DNA from: a bacterium
Lineage (GTDB): Bacteria; UBP6; UBA1177
Assembly (NCBI GenBank): GCA_017961325.1
Contig: JAGCXM010000031.1
Location: 1 to 64,000, forward strand
Direction of reading: 5' to 3'
DNA length: 64,000 nucleotides
Notes under the pieces: generated by a model
What the model saw: the letters and a program-made list of their open reading frames with translations, nothing else
What the model was told of the DNA's origin: nothing
The model's database searches: none
Shown: in pieces, positions 57,716-64,000 of the stretch
Position numbering within the stretch: position 1 is the stretch's first letter
Layout of the letters: each line of letters begins with the position of its first letter
Position numbers and translations under genes: made by a program

Positions 57716-58966
57716 ATGACCACGAAAGAAAAGATCATCGAAGCAGTCGCTCAGGAAACAAAACAGCATTCGAGACTCAGTACGGGAACTTCGATGCTCC
57801 GCAAATCGGCGACTCTCGAGATTTCGGCAAAGGCGAAAAGAATGAACGCACAGGGTGACAGAGTCATCTCCTTCTCCGCAGGCGAACCCGATTTCGACAC
57901 GCCGGAAAACATCAAGAACGCTGCGAAACTCGCTCTTGACAAAGGTTTCACGAAATACACCGACACGACTGGTATCGCAGAGCTCAAAAAGGCGATCAGA
58001 CAGAAATTCATGAGAGAAAACAACCTTCACTACGACGAAGGCAACATTCTTGTGACGAGCGGTGCGAAATACGCGATCTACGCTGCGATCATGGCGATAG
58101 TAAGCCCGGGTGAAGAAGTCATCATCCCGGCTCCCTACTGGGTAAGCTACACGACGATGGTCAAACTTGCGGGCGGCAAACCGGTTTTCTGCTACACGAA
58201 AGAGGAAAACGGCTTCAAACTCAAACTTGACGACCTTAAACCGGTCATCACCGAAAACACGAAAGCCGTCATCATCAACACGCCGAACAACCCTACGGGC
58301 GCAGTTTACGAAGCAAGCGACCTTGAAGAGATCGCAAACTATCTCTGCGAAAGGAACATCATCATCATCAGCGACGAAATCTACGAAAAGGTCATCTACG
58401 ACCACAAGCAGCATGTTTCCCTTGCAAGCATCGTTCCTGACAAATACAAAAAGGACATCATCGTAATCAACGGCGTTTCAAAGGCTTACTCGATGACGGG
58501 ATGGCGTATCGGCTACGCTGCGGCTCCTAAAGACATCGCAGAAAGAATGACATTCTTCCTGGCACACACCACGTCGAACGCGAACTCGATCGCGATGTAT
58601 GCAACAGTCGAAGCATTGAACGGCCCGCAGAACTCAGTTGAGAACATGGTCCGCCGCTTCGACAGAAGACGTGAATTCATGTACGAAGAACTCAAGAAGA
58701 TTCCGGGACTCGTTCCGATCCATCCGCAGGGTGCTTTCTACATTTTCTGCAACTTCAAGCACTATCTCGGAAAGAGCGTACGCGGCAACGTCATCAACAC
58801 GACGATCGAACTTGCGAACTTCCTGCTTGACGAAGCACACGTCGCGGTAGTTCCGGGCGAAAGCTTCGGTATGCCTGGATACATCCGCTTCTCTTATGCA
58901 ACGAATATGGACAACATCGCCGAAGGAATAGACAACCTTGCAGCGGCGCTGGCAGATTTTGAATAA
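57716..58966 (+). CDS. aspC: Class I/II aminotransferase, probably aspartate aminotransferase
   Basis: This 416-residue PLP enzyme has FSAGEPDFDTPENIK (about 53-67), PNNPTGAVY (about 190-198), the PLP-lysine motif GVSKAYSMTGWRIGY (about 252-266, Lys at 255) and the C-terminal substrate-binding Arg in YIRFSYA. The pattern matches aspartate aminotransferase subgroup Ib; other amino donors are possible. Codon choice is strongly biased (GAC, AAC, ATC, CTT), unlike most neighbours, suggesting high expression. Pta follows after 22 nt. Confidence 0.9.
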   Translation: MTTKEKIIEAVAQETKQHSRLSTGTSMLRKSATLEISAKAKRMNAQGDRVISFSAGEPDFDTPENIKNAAKLALDKGFTKYTDTTGIAELKKAIRQKFMRENNLHYDEGNILVTSGAKYAIYAAIMAIVSPGEEVIIPAPYWVSYTTMVKLAGGKPVFCYTKEENGFKLKLDDLKPVITENTKAVIINTPNNPTGAVYEASDLEEIANYLCERNIIIISDEIYEKVIYDHKQHVSLASIVPDKYKKDIIVINGVSKAYSMTGWRIGYAAAPKDIAERMTFFLAHTTSNANSIAMYATVEALNGPQNSVENMVRRFDRRREFMYEELKKIPGLVPIHPQGAFYIFCNFKHYLGKSVRGNVINTTIELANFLLDEAHVAVVPGESFGMPGYIRFSYATNMDNIAEGIDNLAAALADFE

Positions 58967-58988
58967 CTTTTAAATGAAGGAGTAAATT

Positions 58989-59984
58989 ATGAATTTTATT
59001 GAAACTTTGCGTGAAAAGGCAGTCAAAGTACAGAAAACGATAGTTCTTCCGGAAGGAACCGAACCGAGGACCCTCAAGGCGACCCAGATCATCCTTGAAA
59101 AGAAGATCGCGAAACCGATCCTCATCGGAAACCCAGACAAAATCGCGGCAGCAGCTAAAGAACTCGGCGTAAAAATCGACGGCGCAAGAATAGTTGATCC
59201 TGTAAACAGCGAATACTACGAAGATTTCGTCAACACATTCTACGAAATGAGAAAGGCGAAAGGCGTTGATATGGAAAAAGCACGCAAAATGATGGCTGAC
59301 GAAGTTTACTTCGCAACGATGATGGTCAAGAAAGACGTCGCTGACGGTCTTGTAAGCGGTGCCATCCATTCGACCGGCGACACGATCCGTCCGGCTCTCC
59401 AGATCATCAAGACGAAACCCGGCATCAAATCGGTTTCCAGTGCGTTCGTTATGATAGTTCCCAACTGCGAGCTCGGCAGCAACGGAATGTTCCTTTTCGG
59501 AGACTGCGCAGTCAATCCGAATCCGACTTCCGCAGAACTTGCAGAGAGCGCGATCCTCACGGCTCAGACGGCAAAATCATTCTGCGACATGGATCCGAAA
59601 GTCGCTCTTCTCAGCTTCTCGACCTACGGCAGCGCGAAACACGAATTCGTAGACAAAGTCGTCGAAGCAGTAAAGATCGTCCACGAAACTGCTCCCGACC
59701 TTGCAGCTGACGGCGAGATCCAGGCTGACGCGGCAATGGTTGCAAGTGTAGGAAAAACGAAATGCCCGACGAGCCCGATCGCAGGACAGGCGAACGTACT
59801 CATCTTCCCCGACCTTCAGAGCGGAAACATCGGCTACAAACTCGTTCAGAGACTTGCAAAAGCAGAAGCAGTCGGTCCTTTCCTTCAGGGAATCGCGAAA
59901 CCGGTCAACGACCTTTCGAGAGGCTGCTCTGTTGACGATATCGTAAACGTAGTTGCAGCAACTGCGATCCAGGCTGCAAACTAA
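58989..59984 (+). CDS. pta: Phosphate acetyltransferase
   Basis: This 331-residue single-domain enzyme converts acetyl-CoA plus phosphate to acetyl phosphate. KTIVLPEGTEPRTLKA, SGAIHSTGDTIRPALQ, SSAFVMIVPN and the closing VNDLSRGCSVDDIVN are family signatures; it is the short form without the DRTGG/BioD-like N-terminus. With AckA it forms acetate and ATP. Strong SD (GAAGGAG). Same biased codon use as aspC. No clear terminator follows. Confidence 0.96.
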   Translation: MNFIETLREKAVKVQKTIVLPEGTEPRTLKATQIILEKKIAKPILIGNPDKIAAAAKELGVKIDGARIVDPVNSEYYEDFVNTFYEMRKAKGVDMEKARKMMADEVYFATMMVKKDVADGLVSGAIHSTGDTIRPALQIIKTKPGIKSVSSAFVMIVPNCELGSNGMFLFGDCAVNPNPTSAELAESAILTAQTAKSFCDMDPKVALLSFSTYGSAKHEFVDKVVEAVKIVHETAPDLAADGEIQADAAMVASVGKTKCPTSPIAGQANVLIFPDLQSGNIGYKLVQRLAKAEAVGPFLQGIAKPVNDLSRGCSVDDIVNVVAATAIQAAN

Positions 59985-60066
59985 GTCTTTTCAAATTAAA
60001 CAGTAAATTTTCCACAAAATCACAAAATCTACCGCTTTAACTGCCGGATAACAACTGCTTTTATTA

Positions 60067-60342
60067 TTATTTTGTTGCGGAATCTGAAAGATTTTTGCCT
60101 TCATAAGAGCGTACCGGCTGTTCCCTGCTGAAAACGAGAAACTCGGCCGGATACAGATCCACAACTCTTGCCATGCGGTTGATAAGGTCTATCGTAGCGG
60201 CACTTCTTCCGTTTTCGACTTCTGAAATATAGGCTCTGTCGATTCCGCTCAGACGTGAAAGATCCCATTGAGACATTTTTCTGAATTTTCTCAAAAACTT
60301 CAGTCTTTTTCCGAACTCAGCACGAATTTCAGCATTTGTCAC
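60067..60342 (-). CDS. XRE-family transcriptional regulator
   Basis: This 91-residue regulator (MTNAEIRAEFGKRL start) has a complete helix-turn-helix (FRKMSQWDLSRLSGIDRAYISEVENGR, about 21-47) of the SinR/XRE type. GTG 60342 has GAGGT eight bases upstream; an earlier TTG (60357) has none. The promoter is almost perfect and contains a 5-bp inverted repeat, so it is probably autorepressed. It marks the left border of the right accessory region and is transcribed away from the Ter genes. Confidence 0.85.
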   Translation of the reverse strand: MTNAEIRAEFGKRLKFLRKFRKMSQWDLSRLSGIDRAYISEVENGRSAATIDLINRMARVVDLYPAEFLVFSREQPVRSYEGKNLSDSATK

Positions 60343-60377
60343 GATATTTGACCTCAATAAGCAAAAAAATCGCAGGC

Positions 60378-60405
60378 ATTATAATAATCCGTTTCCGGAT
60401 GTCAA
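60378..60405 (-). promoter_or_regulatory. Consensus promoter with operator-like repeat (XRE gene)
   Basis: On the minus strand perfect TTGACA (60405-60400) and TATAAT (60383-60378) are 16 bp apart. ATCCG/CGGAT arms (60387-60391, 60396-60400) form an inverted repeat in the spacer, a likely site for its own HTH product. Confidence 0.75.
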
Positions 60406-60528
60406 AGAGTTTCAGCATGATAACGCCGCAAAATACAAAAGAAATCGCGAGTTCGAGATAATTGAACTTCTTCTTGTGTAAAGCAAATCGACCGTCATAT
60501 TATTGTAATGTTGCCAACCGAATTTTTT

Positions 60529-60550
60529 AACAAAATTTTGTTGTATAAAT
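60529..60550 (+). promoter_or_regulatory. Palindrome and -10-like box before the DUF1566 gene
   Basis: A perfect 14-bp palindrome AACAAAATTTTGTT (60529-60542) is directly followed by TATAAAT (60544-60550). The -35 is poor, so this may be an activator- or repressor-controlled promoter. The rest of 60406-60628 shows no gene. Confidence 0.35.
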
Positions 60551-60628
60551 CAAACAAAAATGATATATGAAAGCGACTTTTGCAGTTTCGATATTGAAGT
60601 GAAACTGCTGTTTTTAAGGAGGGAGACC

Positions 60629-61036
60629 TTGGCACGGAAAAAAGGTGCAGCCGAAAATAAGTCAAGTTCGGAAGTTTCAAGAAATTTTATCGACCGAGGC
60701 GACTATATTGAAGTGGTGCCGCCCTTGGGCACGATCAGGATGATTCAAAAAGGAAGTGCCGGAACCCCGATGAACTGGCATGATGCAATGGAATACGCAA
60801 AAAATCTGAAATTGGGAGGCTTCACTGACTGGCACATTCCCACGATTGAAGAACTCAAAGCAATTTATAAAATACAGAAAATCTGCGGGATCGACAAGTC
60901 GGACGAATTCTGGTTCTGGTCATCGTCAGATTCGCAGAAAGATCCGGATTCTGCATCCTGTATCGGATTTTTTAAAGGCAGAAAAGACCGCCACAATAAA
61001 ATCAAAAACTTAGGTGATATTAGGTGCGTCAGGTAA
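60629..61036 (+). CDS. DUF1566 (Lcl C-terminal-like) protein
   Basis: This 135-residue protein contains a DUF1566 domain: MNWHDAMEYAKNLKLGGFTDWHIPTIEEL... pattern (about 51-80), then EFWFWSSSDS and a final IRCVR, typical of the C-type-lectin-like sulfatase/Lcl fold. It starts at TTG 60629, backed by an excellent AAGGAGGGAG; a longer ATG start (60560) has no SD. The N-terminus is basic and has no signal peptide, so it may be cytosolic. It lies directly before the TerD operon, in the same direction but with a separate promoter between. Confidence 0.75.
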   Translation: MARKKGAAENKSSSEVSRNFIDRGDYIEVVPPLGTIRMIQKGSAGTPMNWHDAMEYAKNLKLGGFTDWHIPTIEELKAIYKIQKICGIDKSDEFWFWSSSDSQKDPDSASCIGFFKGRKDRHNKIKNLGDIRCVR

Positions 61037-61089
61037 GCCCCTTTTTATTTTCTAAAGATTTCAACCGGTTTTTCTTTTAAAGAAAATTG

Positions 61090-61118
61090 TTGACTGTATC
61101 CAACAAGATTGATATAAA
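61090..61118 (+). promoter_or_regulatory. Promoter of the TerD-kinase-TerY operon
   Basis: TTGACT (61090-61095), 17 bp, TATAAA (61113-61118), giving a ~67-nt leader before the chosen TerD start. Confidence 0.65.
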
Positions 61119-61191
61119 AACTCATTTTTTGTTCATTAAAGAGATAATCAAGAATTTTCTTGTTTGTTTGGAGAGTAGAGGTATCACTTAT

Positions 61192-61752
61192 ATGCCAAAA
61201 TCTAATTTGGAGTTCGTTCTTATTGGGTTGAGATGGGACGGTTCCCAATACGGCAAATATTTTTACTTTGATATGGATATATCCGCTTTTATGCTGGATG
61301 GAACCGACAAGCTTATAAACCCATCAGATTTTATTTTCTACAATAATCTCAAAGACCGCAATGATGCGATTATTCACAGCGGTGACAATAGGAATGGTAG
61401 TAATAATGGTTGTAATAATGATAGTGAAACAATTGTTGTAGATTTTTCAAAAATCCCTGATGAAATAAAAAAAATAGCAATTTGTGTTTCAATACATGAT
61501 TCGGAAATTAGATATTCCAATTTTGGTCAGGTTTCTGATGCATATGTTCGTATAGTTCAACTTGCAGATGAAAACGATAAAAAGGGAACTCCTATTCTTT
61601 TATTTGATTTGAGTAACGAGTTCTCTGCTGAGTCTGCATTGGTTGTGGCTGAATTTTGCAGGAATGGTGGCAAATGGGACTGCACGGCTGTTTCGCGAGG
61701 AGTTAATGGTGGTTTAGAAGGAATATGCAGTTTATTTGGGGCTGATATATAG
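61192..61752 (+). CDS. TerD-family protein
   Basis: This 186-residue TerD-domain protein has LIGLRWDG (10-17), YFDMDISAFMLDG (25-37), DFIFYNNL (46-53), HSGDNRNG (62-69) and FGQVSDAYVRIV (111-122), the regular TerD landmarks. TerD proteins bind calcium and belong to tellurite/stress-response complexes. The usual GDDE calcium loop is altered to NNDSE here and the first beta strand is short, so calcium binding may be weaker. ATG 61192 has GAGGT nine bases upstream; a longer frame upstream has no TerD similarity. First gene of the operon with the kinase and VWA genes. Confidence 0.85.
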   Translation: MPKSNLEFVLIGLRWDGSQYGKYFYFDMDISAFMLDGTDKLINPSDFIFYNNLKDRNDAIIHSGDNRNGSNNGCNNDSETIVVDFSKIPDEIKKIAICVSIHDSEIRYSNFGQVSDAYVRIVQLADENDKKGTPILLFDLSNEFSAESALVVAEFCRNGGKWDCTAVSRGVNGGLEGICSLFGADI

Positions 61753-61772
61753 TTTTTTTTAAGGAGATATGA

Positions 61773-63074
61773 ATGAAAGAATTTCAGCAAGGGCAGATGA
61801 TAAAAACGCTCTCGGGCGATAGTTTGAAGGTAATTCAAAAATTGGGAGAAGGCGGTCAGGGTGTTGTTTACAAAGTTGAATATAATGGAAAGGAAAAGGC
61901 TCTTAAATGGTATTTTGGCAACAAACTTCGCCATGCCAATGCTTTTTATAAAAATTTACAGACAAACATTAGTGAAGGAACTCCAAATCGGTCATTTTTG
62001 TGGCCTGAAGAATTGACGGAACACTTTGATGGAAGTTTCGGATATATAATGAATTTAAGACCGTCTGAATATAAGGATTTTGGTCGTTTTCTTCTTGCGA
62101 AGGAACATTTTGCGAGCATATACGCTGCTATTGATGCCGCTCTTTGCATCGTTAACGGTTTCAGAGCATTACACAACCGAGGTTACAGTTATCAGGATCT
62201 TAATGACGGTAACTTTTTTGTCAACCCTAAGACTGGAGATGTGCTTATATGCGACAATGATAATGTTGCTCCTTATGGTACAAATCTCGGTATTGCTGGT
62301 AAATGCAGATATATGGCACCAGAGGTTGTTTTAGGCAGAAAACGTCCGGATATACATACTGACCGTTTTTCTTTGGCTGTAGTTCTTTATCTTATGTTGT
62401 TTTTAAATCATCCGCTTGAAGGCAGAAGAACGATGTGTCCGTGTATGACAGAAGAACTTGATTTCAGATTTTACGGGAAAGAGCCGATATTTGTATATGA
62501 TCCGAATAACGACACAAATAGACCTGTTGTAGGTATCCATACAAATGAAATCATGTTCTGGCCCATTTATCCTAAATTTATTCGTGAACTTTTTGAAAGA
62601 TCTTTCAGTCAAGATGCTATGATAGGAAAAGATACCGAACACCGTGTTATTGAAAAAATATGGGAGGAGGCTTTTATAAAATTAAAGGGATTAATTATGA
62701 AATGCCCGTTCTGCGGAGATGAAATCTTCATAGATCCAATGCAGCAGGAACAGAAGTGTATTTTCTGCGGCAAAACTTTTGATTCTCCTTTGATGTTGAA
62801 GGTGAAGAAATACTCTCCAGTATTGGTTGACAGCTCAAAACTTTATGCCTGTCATGTAAAGCATGATAGCAGTGATTTTCGCACTGTCATGGGAGAAGTG
62901 GTTTCAAATAAAACAGATCCGAAGATACTCGGACTTAAAAACTGTTCTGGTTTTGCCTGGGAGGCGATTCTTCCGACCGGTGAAAGCAGACCTTTTGCTG
63001 ATGGTCAGGTGTTTAAATTAGGAAAAGGACTTAAAATTAATTTTGGGAACGGCAACATTGCCGAAGTATTTTAA
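61773..63074 (+). CDS. Divergent protein kinase with zinc ribbon (TerY-associated)
   Basis: This 433-residue protein has an N-terminal kinase fold: glycine loop LGEGGQGVVYKV (24-35), Lys 45 (KEKALKWY), a catalytic loop written YQDLNDGN (140-147) instead of HRDLKPxN, D-N-D at 161-163 in place of DFG, and MAPE (181-184). A zinc ribbon follows with CPFC (311-314) and CIFC (329-332), then a ~100-residue C-terminal beta domain. Kinases of this style occur with TerY and a PP2C phosphatase in the predicted TerY-P triad. The catalytic Asp and metal Asp are kept, so activity is plausible. Operon spacing is 20 nt after TerD. Confidence 0.8.
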   Translation: MKEFQQGQMIKTLSGDSLKVIQKLGEGGQGVVYKVEYNGKEKALKWYFGNKLRHANAFYKNLQTNISEGTPNRSFLWPEELTEHFDGSFGYIMNLRPSEYKDFGRFLLAKEHFASIYAAIDAALCIVNGFRALHNRGYSYQDLNDGNFFVNPKTGDVLICDNDNVAPYGTNLGIAGKCRYMAPEVVLGRKRPDIHTDRFSLAVVLYLMLFLNHPLEGRRTMCPCMTEELDFRFYGKEPIFVYDPNNDTNRPVVGIHTNEIMFWPIYPKFIRELFERSFSQDAMIGKDTEHRVIEKIWEEAFIKLKGLIMKCPFCGDEIFIDPMQQEQKCIFCGKTFDSPLMLKVKKYSPVLVDSSKLYACHVKHDSSDFRTVMGEVVSNKTDPKILGLKNCSGFAWEAILPTGESRPFADGQVFKLGKGLKINFGNGNIAEVF

Positions 63075-63086
63075 AGAGGTGAAAAA

Positions 63087-63947
63087 ATGGGAATCTACGA
63101 TCACAGTGTCGAAGTCGCAAGAAGAACGATGGTTTTGTTCTTTGTTGTTGATTGTTCTGGAAGTATGTCTGGTGCCAAAATAGGAACAGTAAATTCTGCA
63201 ATAGAAGAAATTGTTCCTGAATTGAGAGATACTTCGGAAAATAATGCTGATGCACAGATAAAAATCGCGACTCTTGCCTTTTCCACTGGAGCAGAATGGA
63301 TTAATCCGCCGATAGCAGCCGAAAATTTTAATTGGACATATCTTGATGCATGTGGTGTTACTGATTTAGGCGAAGCATGCAATCAGCTTAATGAAAAACT
63401 CTCTAAAAACGCTTTTATGGGTGAAGCAAGAGGTTCTTTTGCTCCGGCAATTTTTCTTCTCTCTGATGGAGAGCCAACTGATGATTACAAACACGGACTT
63501 GAAAAATTAAAGAAGAACAATTGGTTTAAAAAAGCAATAAAGGTTGCGATTGCAATAGGAAATGATGCAAATAAAAGCGTTCTTGCCGATTTTACAGGAA
63601 GTTCAGAATCGGTAATAACTGTCCATTCTCCTGAAGCTTTGAAAAAATGGATAAAATTTGTAAGTGTAAGATCCTCTGAAATAGGAAGTAAAAGTTCCTC
63701 AACCAGAACTGAATCGCATAGTAGTTCGTCTACAAGAAGTGCAGATGCTGGATTGTCAGACGGCCTAACTAGTTCAGGTGTAACAGATAGTCAGTTGAAT
63801 TCCGTTAAAGCGCAAAATTCGGTAGATAGTTTTAATTGGTCTGACTGGGATAATATCGAAAATAAAAATGACGCTTTGACCGATGCAATTAAGAATGAAA
63901 TGGAGACGAATCCTGACATGAAAGATGATGCTTGGGGCGAATGGTAG
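63087..63947 (+). CDS. TerY-like VWA-domain protein
   Basis: This 286-residue protein has a VWA domain (about 14-200) with an intact MIDAS D-C-S-G-S-M-S (22-28), a downstream Thr (GVTDLGEA) and LLSDGEPTDD. This is the TerY type, which is thought to bridge proteins in Ter complexes. A Ser/Thr-rich linker (about 205-235) leads to an acidic Trp-containing tail (FNWSDWDNI; DDAWGEW end). The linker is a candidate target for the neighbouring kinase. Starts 12 nt after the kinase stop; SD AAAGAGGTG. Confidence 0.88.
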   Translation: MGIYDHSVEVARRTMVLFFVVDCSGSMSGAKIGTVNSAIEEIVPELRDTSENNADAQIKIATLAFSTGAEWINPPIAAENFNWTYLDACGVTDLGEACNQLNEKLSKNAFMGEARGSFAPAIFLLSDGEPTDDYKHGLEKLKKNNWFKKAIKVAIAIGNDANKSVLADFTGSSESVITVHSPEALKKWIKFVSVRSSEIGSKSSSTRTESHSSSSTRSADAGLSDGLTSSGVTDSQLNSVKAQNSVDSFNWSDWDNIENKNDALTDAIKNEMETNPDMKDDAWGEW

Positions 63948-63956
63948 GAGTCTGTA

Positions 63957-64000
63957 ATGGTTAAAGTGAATATTTCAAGGGAAGCTACGGTTATTGTTGC
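63957..64000 (+). CDS. 5' end of the next gene in the TerY operon, cut by the edge
   Basis: ATG 63957 has AGGAG six bases upstream and opens a frame (MVKVNISREATVIV) that continues out of the window. It lies 9 nt after the VWA stop, so it belongs to the same operon. In comparable clusters a PP2C phosphatase or another TerD/VWA protein would be expected, but these 14 residues do not decide it. Confidence 0.6.
   Translation, partial: MVKVNISREATVIV

What the first reader, a model, noticed from the sequence alone, without database searches (positions are those of the whole stretch)
61090..64000. TerD, divergent zinc-ribbon kinase and TerY operon continuing off the edge
The gene set fits the computationally predicted TerY-P phospho-signalling triad, but the kinase has YQDLNDGN and DND in place of the usual HRDLKPxN and DFG, plus a zinc ribbon and an extra C-terminal domain. 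The VWA partner has a Ser/Thr-rich linker and an acidic Trp tail that could be its substrate. The following gene is cut off and may be the missing phosphatase or a new effector. This is a strong candidate for an undescribed stress or anti-phage system.
Basis: partly seen in the sequence, partly recalled or inferred. Interest (0 to 1): 0.65.

Follow-up and report, generated by a model that had tools for sequence, protein, structure and literature searches.

The report
Acquired TerY-P kinase-phosphatase switch with TerD
This is a horizontally acquired copy of a known bacterial on/off phosphorylation switch (a kinase, two metal-binding partner proteins, a zinc-binding protein and a phosphatase); its odd kinase motifs turn out to be the normal signature of a widespread, poorly studied subfamily whose partner proteins nearly all end in a conserved tryptophan tail.

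Summary
The window cuts a six-gene cluster that I followed to the contig end (C13:66739): TerD, Ser/Thr kinase, VWA1, stand-alone TerY_C zinc protein, VWA2, PP2C phosphatase. This is the published TerY-P triad plus TerD and TerY_C, so 'undescribed system' is not supported. The 'divergent' kinase motifs (YQDLNDGN, DND) are the norm in 51 aligned family kinases; K45, D142 and D161 are invariant, so activity is expected. The C-terminal domain folds like FHA in models (Z 9.5) but lacks the FHA sequence signature. Nearest relatives are Clostridia (about 67% identity), where the operon also carries a Ca-type P-ATPase and a zinc-ribbon repeat protein. Two congeners match the upstream flank at 94% and then lack the cluster: an acquired accessory locus. 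TerB and TerC were not found in this genome, so it is not a classical tellurite operon. Locus-specific oddities: VWA-TerY_C-VWA order, a PP2C with a membrane segment, a TerD missing its N-terminus and part of its acidic loop. Function (stress or anti-phage) remains inferred.

The parts
61037..61106 (.). Upstream boundary of the acquired cluster: identity to two congeners stops here
   Evidence: blastn of window 58900-64000 against L173 (G013) aligns to 61106 at 94.1%, against L174 (G009) to 61036 at 94.6%, nothing beyond
61192..61752 (+). TerD-domain protein, 186 aa from ATG (TTG ORF from 61087); lacks the N-terminal ~17 positions of the family and part of its acidic loop
   Evidence: PF02342 167.8 bits, profile 18-187; compared with 48 TerD proteins; phmmer to 2kxt E 4e-37
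61773..63074 (+). Ser/Thr kinase, 433 aa: kinase domain, zinc ribbon, C-terminal FHA-fold domain
   Evidence: PF00069 55.6 bits; model pLDDT 93
62190..62213 (+). Catalytic loop YQDLNDGN (residues 140-147)
   Evidence: Sequence; near invariant in 51 aligned kinases
62250..62261 (+). CDND (residues 160-163), DFG-equivalent metal site
   Evidence: D161 and D163 in 51 of 51 rows
62694..62789 (+). Zinc ribbon of the kinase (residues 308-339; C311, C314, C329, C332)
   Evidence: Conserved Cys in A2; Pfam match below cut-off
62790..63071 (+). C-terminal FHA-fold domain (residues 340-433)
   Evidence: Own model pLDDT 93.2; VIA-align best Z 9.5, rmsd 3.2, 90 aligned, APLF FHA; the list is made of FHA entries
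63087..63947 (+). VWA1 (TerY-like), 286 aa, MIDAS DCSGS, Ser/Thr-rich linker
   Evidence: PF00092 34.9 bits; up to 83% identical to the L045 VWA
63924..63944 (+). C-terminal acidic Trp tail DDAWGEW of VWA1
   Evidence: Such a tail in 66 of 68 VWA proteins after such kinases
63957..64000 (+). Start of the stand-alone TerY_C zinc protein, 121 aa, contig 63957-64322; followed on the contig by VWA2 (64339-65058, 239 aa) and PP2C (65064 to beyond 66737)
   Evidence: PF15616 42.4 bits; VWA 38.3 bits; PP2C_2 102.4 bits

Best explanation
A laterally acquired TerY-P phospho-switch. The kinase (shown: catalytic residues intact; inferred: active) phosphorylates itself and/or the Ser/Thr-rich linkers of the two VWA proteins; the PP2C (shown: PP2C motifs and a hydrophobic TM-like segment; inferred: active and membrane-anchored) removes the phosphates. 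The VWA proteins carry MIDAS metal sites and present their conserved acidic Trp tails as docking peptides to a triad partner, most likely the kinase's FHA-fold/zinc-ribbon module or the PP2C (inferred). TerY_C and TerD are accessory metal-binding parts (inferred). The phosphorylation state of the VWA proteins would be the output that licenses a further effector or sensor; in relatives a zinc-ribbon repeat protein often lies next to the triad, and here it would lie past the contig end (inferred). The trigger is envelope, metal or phage stress; the data do not decide.
For: Gene set by Pfam. Kinase-VWA-PP2C association: of 85 loci holding the kinase, VWA in 72 and PP2C in 69 within 9 kb, some cut by contig ends. 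K45, D142, D161 in 51 of 51 and N147 in 50 of 51 kinases. E. [quoted passage not shown] Trp tail 66 of 68 against 7 of 1135. PP2C hydrophobic segment, mean hydropathy 3.04 over 19 residues. Zinc-ribbon repeat partner near 17 of 85 loci (LRR, RCC1, WG repeats). Acquisition: the kinase tree places it with 26 Bacillota rows, SH-aLRT 98; congener flank comparison.
Against: No phosphorylation, binding or phenotype data exist for this locus. The FHA assignment is by fold only: Foldseek best E 0.059, HHalign to 20 FHA sequences probability 2.8%, no FHA match to Pfam in any of 51 members. The window's TerD has lost conserved acidic positions (N72, S78) and its N-terminus, so it may be decaying. The contig ends in the PP2C, so an effector is not seen. 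Most relatives' PP2C lack the TM-like segment (2 of 66 reach the threshold).
Confidence: 0.65

Rival explanations
1. It is an anti-phage module in its own right, as reported for other TerY-P systems.
For: TerY-P was reported active against T7-like phages (PMC7699616) and Autographiviridae (PMC10889362). A relative, L120, carries TerY_C-STK-VWA-PP2C directly after BrxC-PglX-PglZ-BrxL. The cluster sits at a site that differs between congeners.
Against: Of 11 relative loci whose flanks I scanned in part for families (L040, L042, L045, L053, L064, L067, L071, L078, L111, L120, L123), only L120 showed a clear known defence system; the closest relatives sit with a Ca-type P-ATPase, TerD and repeat proteins. 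PADLOC gives no TerY-P model match, but it gives none for a canonical ter plasmid either, so that is uninformative.
Confidence: 0.25
2. It is a metal or calcium homeostasis/stress regulator acting with TerD and a calcium-type P-ATPase.
For: Ca-type P-ATPase in 16 of 85 loci, all 16 also with TerD (21 of 85) upstream of the kinase.
Against: This copy lacks the ATPase; its TerD has lost part of the acidic loop; TerB and TerC were not found in the genome.
Confidence: 0.3
3. A decaying fragment: a Clostridial-type operon captured and trimmed at its 5' end, no longer functional.
For: No ATPase and only one TerD; TerD short at its N-terminus close to the breakpoint; acidic loop changed.
Against: Kinase, VWA1, TerY_C, VWA2 and the held part of PP2C are open with conserved motifs; VWA1 is up to 83% identical to a Lachnospiraceae protein.
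Confidence: 0.15

Closest known systems
TerY-P triad (Anantharaman, Iyer, Aravind 2012, not held; described in PMC11090510)
   Same: TerY-like VWA, PP2C and STK fused to a C-terminal zinc ribbon, in one operon
   Different: Kinase has an FHA-fold domain after the ribbon (not mentioned in the passages read); duplicated VWA with TerY_C as a separate gene between them; PP2C with a TM-like segment
TerY region of ter plasmids (e.g. Enterobacter hormaechei NZ_CP149842, L037)
   Same: VWA, TerD, VWA, TerY_C-containing VWA, PP2C and STK adjacent; kinase C-terminus probably the same domain (HHalign probability 54%, reversed control 1.2%)
   Different: Kinase about 25% identical over 60%; VWA tails there end in a Pro-rich stretch and VVL/LVL, not Trp; TerY_C is annotated within one VWA-like protein there; no TerB/TerC in this genome
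Lachnospiraceae/Clostridia operon (e.g. L045)
   Same: Kinase about 67% and VWA1 up to 83% identical; TerD, STK, VWA, PP2C order
   Different: There a Ca-type P-ATPase and two TerD upstream, one VWA, and LRR protein, TerY_C and transglutaminase-like genes downstream
Prevotella sp. E2-28 plasmid operon (L035)
   Same: TerY_C (121 aa, stand-alone), STK with the same YQDLNDGN/CDND, VWA with a ...DDWG tail, PP2C
   Different: No TerD next to it; kinase 43% identical
E. coli YegI-PphC(-YegL)
   Same: Kinase lacking conserved motifs paired with a PP2C (PMC13232886 passage)
   Different: Not compared by sequence here; that YegL is a VWA protein is recalled

Membership tests
TerY-P triad | TerY-like VWA protein with MIDAS | tested here: met
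   PF00092 over cut-off for VWA1 and VWA2; DCSGS in both
TerY-P triad | PP2C phosphatase | tested here: met
   PF13672 102.4 bits; DGHGG, GDG, SDG, GDD found; 3' end not held
TerY-P triad | Ser/Thr kinase with C-terminal zinc ribbon | tested here: met
   PF00069 55.6 bits; four conserved Cys; Pfam ribbon models under cut-off
TerY-P triad | The genes are adjacent | tested here: met
   Gaps of 12, 9, 16 and 5 bases from kinase to PP2C
TerY-P triad | Phosphorylation signalling shown | not testable with these tools
   Needs biochemistry
Classical tellurite-resistance ter operon | TerB and TerC present | tested here: not met
   No PF03741 or PF05099 match in a 97.9% complete assembly
Classical tellurite-resistance ter operon | Several TerD paralogues | tested here: not met
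   One PF02342 match in the assembly
FHA domain (kinase 340-433) | FHA beta-sandwich fold | tested here: met
   Z 9.5, rmsd 3.2, 90 aligned; listed rows are FHA entries, a few recognised as FHA proteins from memory
FHA domain (kinase 340-433) | Sequence signature and phosphopeptide residues (GR, SxxH, NG; recalled) | tested here: not met
   No Pfam FHA match in 51 members; HHalign 2.8%, and its weak path puts no such residues there
TerY-P anti-phage systems of Gao 2020 | Kinase C-terminal OB-fold (as stated in PMC11090510) | tested here: inconclusive
   The fold searches listed FHA folds; the Gao kinases were not compared

The most novel reading that the evidence does not exclude
The subfamily is a distinct TerY-P subtype in which the VWA protein's C-terminal acidic Trp tail is a dedicated docking ligand read by the kinase's cryptic FHA-fold domain (or by the PP2C), so that phosphorylation of the adjacent Ser/Thr linker switches docking and hands the signal to a zinc-ribbon repeat protein encoded alongside: an undescribed short-linear-motif switch shared across Bacillota, Bacteroidota, Spirochaetota and mobile elements.
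Probability: 0.2. Interest if true: 0.6.

Novelty: new variant of a known kind. Interest (0 to 1): 0.38.

Why it matters
The mechanism of TerY-P triads is open: what the kinase phosphorylates, and how VWA, kinase and phosphatase recognise each other. A near-universal C-terminal Trp tail and a cryptic FHA-fold domain in the kinase give two concrete, mutable handles. The locus itself is mainly a useful example of lateral spread of the module and of how its parts can be split and duplicated.

Tried and rejected
PADLOC and NCBIfam gave no TerY-P model match; a PADLOC control with proteins of a canonical ter plasmid and two other TerY-P loci also gave none, so this was dropped as uninformative. The idea that the kinase is a pseudokinase was rejected on conserved catalytic residues. 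The idea that the odd motifs are unique to this locus was rejected. An FHA sequence link was sought by HHalign and not found: of 24 FHA stretches cut out, 2 held stops and were left out of both runs, and 2 misplaced ones were removed before the second run, leaving 20. An attempt to find the rest of the PP2C in another contig through its terminal repeat found only the same contig end. 16S and LpxC searches to place the organism found nothing, so its phylum is not stated. The whole-kinase fold search returned kinase domains, which is why the C-terminal domain was modelled alone. The duplication VWA1/VWA2 could not be dated: they pair with SH-aLRT 70 only and VWA2 has a long branch. The kinase tree is the quick one; the careful search did not finish. 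The tail and zinc-ribbon patterns were written after seeing the sequences, so their enrichment is descriptive, not a blind test; two of 19 raw loci (L060, L104) were dropped as unrelated by eye. A promoter and terminator scan showed no excess over shuffles. Anantharaman 2012, Gao 2020 and the YegI and PphC papers are not held, so what they say about extra kinase domains or tails was not seen; statements about them come from passages of PMC11090510, PMC7699616, PMC10889362 and PMC13232886. Not found in the held library: papers with TerY and 'FHA domain' (0) or TerY-P and tryptophan (0).
Full report
What is there. The window lies at G000:C13:1-64000 of a 2.35 Mb, 97.9% complete assembly. The contig runs 2739 bases past the window, and the cluster continues: TerD (ATG 61192-61752), Ser/Thr kinase (61773-63074), VWA1 (63087-63947), a 121-aa TerY_C protein (63957-64322), VWA2 (64339-65058) and a PP2C gene from 65064 that is still open at the contig end. 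Pfam supports every one above its cut-off: TerD 167.8, Pkinase 55.6, VWA 34.9, TerY_C 42.4, VWA 38.3, PP2C_2 102.4 bits. The genes from kinase to PP2C are 12, 9, 16 and 5 bases apart on one strand, as in an operon. The contig ends in a run of 18-bp repeats inside the PP2C gene; a search of the assembly found that repeat only there.

The kinase is not aberrant. I aligned the window kinase with 46 of the 80 and 4 of the 5 (51 rows). K45, D142, D161, D163 and E184 are in 51 of 51 rows, N147 in 50 of 51; YQD(L/I)NDGN and CDND are the family norm, with exceptions in L123 (NEGS) and L124 (YRDISFGN) and CDTD in a few rows. A Prevotella plasmid kinase has the same letters. The HRD His and the DFG Phe/Gly are replaced, but the catalytic Asp, the metal-binding Asn and Asp and the VAIK-type Lys remain (residue roles recalled). 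E. [quoted passage not shown]

The extra C-terminal domain. AlphaFold gave mean pLDDT 93.0 for the whole kinase and 93.2 for residues 340-433 alone. The 50 entries listed by VIA-align for the latter are FHA domains by title or, for a few, FHA proteins as I recall them; best Z 9.5 with rmsd 3.2 over 90 residues. Foldseek's best are FHA domains too, with E 0.059 at best and probability 0.99-1.00. Against this, none of 51 members matches Pfam FHA and HHalign to 20 FHA sequences gives 2.8%. I read it as an FHA-fold domain without the classical phosphothreonine-binding residues. A profile of it also matches a Nostoc plasmid kinase (E 5.3e-8; HHalign 96.6%), a congener's kinase (L006, 83.4%) and, weakly, the kinases of two ter-type plasmids (54%, reversed control 1.2%), but not the L007 kinase (0.4%). 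So it is probably a general feature of TerY-P kinases rather than a novelty of this locus.

The VWA tail. VWA proteins that directly follow the kinase end in an acidic residue within five positions of a Trp that is last or next to last: 66 of 68 complete ones, against 7 of 1135 other ORFs over 150 aa in the same loci. A differently drawn pattern (at most three residues between, up to three after the Trp) gives 63 of 68 against 9 of 1135; L123 has no terminal Trp. VWA1 ends DDAWGEW and VWA2 NDNFIEW; ter-plasmid TerY proteins end differently. The pattern was chosen after looking, and the proteins are related, so this is conservation, not an independent test; still, the linkers just upstream are variable while the tail is kept.

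Surroundings in relatives. Of 85 loci, VWA lies within 9 kb in 72, PP2C in 69, LRR-like in 25, TerD in 21, TerY_C in 20, the Ca-type P-ATPase in 16; contig ends and thresholds make these lower bounds. In a member of the closest clade, L045, the operon reads P-ATPase, TerD, TerD, kinase, VWA, PP2C, LRR protein, TerY_C, transglutaminase-like. Repeat proteins with an N-terminal MKCxxCxxxW zinc ribbon lie near the kinase in 17 of 85 loci (19 raw; 1 of 377 minus-strand ORFs as background); Pfam shows LRR, RCC1 or WG repeats in those scanned. In one viral-collection contig (L120) the TerY_C-kinase-VWA-PP2C set directly follows BrxC, PglX, PglZ and BrxL genes of a BREX system.

Acquisition. The kinase tree puts the window kinase with 26 Bacillota rows (SH-aLRT 98), next to a Butyricicoccus sequence (90). 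Among 14 congeners the best kinase match is 33% identical. In two congeners the flank is 94% identical up to window 61106 and 61036 and then turns into other genes. The window's TerD, right after this boundary, lacks the first ~17 positions of the family and has N and S where 48 other TerD proteins are acidic at positions 72 (94%) and 78 (100%), so the 5' end of the imported operon may have been trimmed and TerD may be decaying. The phylum of the host was not established (no 16S or LpxC found), so transfer between phyla is likely but not shown.

Particular to this copy. The VWA-TerY_C-VWA order is in none of the gene patterns listed for the 85 loci. The PP2C has a strong TM-like segment after its coiled region; only 2 of 66 relatives' PP2C reach the threshold used. 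TerB and TerC were not found in the assembly, so this is TerY-P plus TerD, not a classical tellurite-resistance operon.

Literature. PMC11090510 (passages) defines TerY-P as TerY-like VWA, PP2C and STK-zinc ribbon, tells of VWA duplication in CoCoNuT type III-A operons, and of TerY-P-like modules with an OB-fold kinase as stand-alone anti-phage systems. PMC7699616 and PMC10889362 (passages) report anti-phage activity of TerY-P. PMC4978471 (passages) describes a TerY-P island in Helicobacter pylori. A preprint on huge gut phages reports phage TerD and calcium P-ATPase genes (PMC12363816, passages). I found no paper in the held library linking TerY with 'FHA domain' or TerY-P with tryptophan. 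The 2012 founding paper could not be read, so priority for the extra domain is open.

Verdict. Observation confirmed; 'new system' not supported; the locus is an acquired variant of TerY-P. The generalisable finds are the Trp tail and the FHA-fold domain.

Noticed in passing
L120:1-12016 (IMG/VR contig 3300032007_002583): BrxC-PglX-PglZ-BrxL immediately followed by TerY_C, TerY-P kinase, VWA and PP2C, then FGE-like and UvrD/RNase T genes: a BREX plus TerY-P arrangement.
   Followed up: partly
L045, L064, L067, L071, L107 and others: Recurrent proteins with an N-terminal MKCxxCxxxW zinc ribbon fused to LRR, RCC1 or WG repeats beside the triad.
   Followed up: partly
window 60560-61036: Lcl_C-domain protein with 60 matches in this assembly and 25 to 97 in congeners: a strongly expanded family in the genus.
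   Followed up: no
G000:C13:66603-66739 (past the window end): The PP2C gene ends at the contig edge in an 18-bp tandem repeat coding KDEKQP, beyond the TM-like segment.
   Followed up: partly
L006 and L007 (congeners G013, G003): Other TerY-P-like kinases with PP2C or VWA neighbours in the same genus, only 30-33% identical to this one.
   Followed up: partly
L115:13243-19400: Proteobacteria MAG with four further VWA-labelled ORFs after the PP2C.
   Followed up: no
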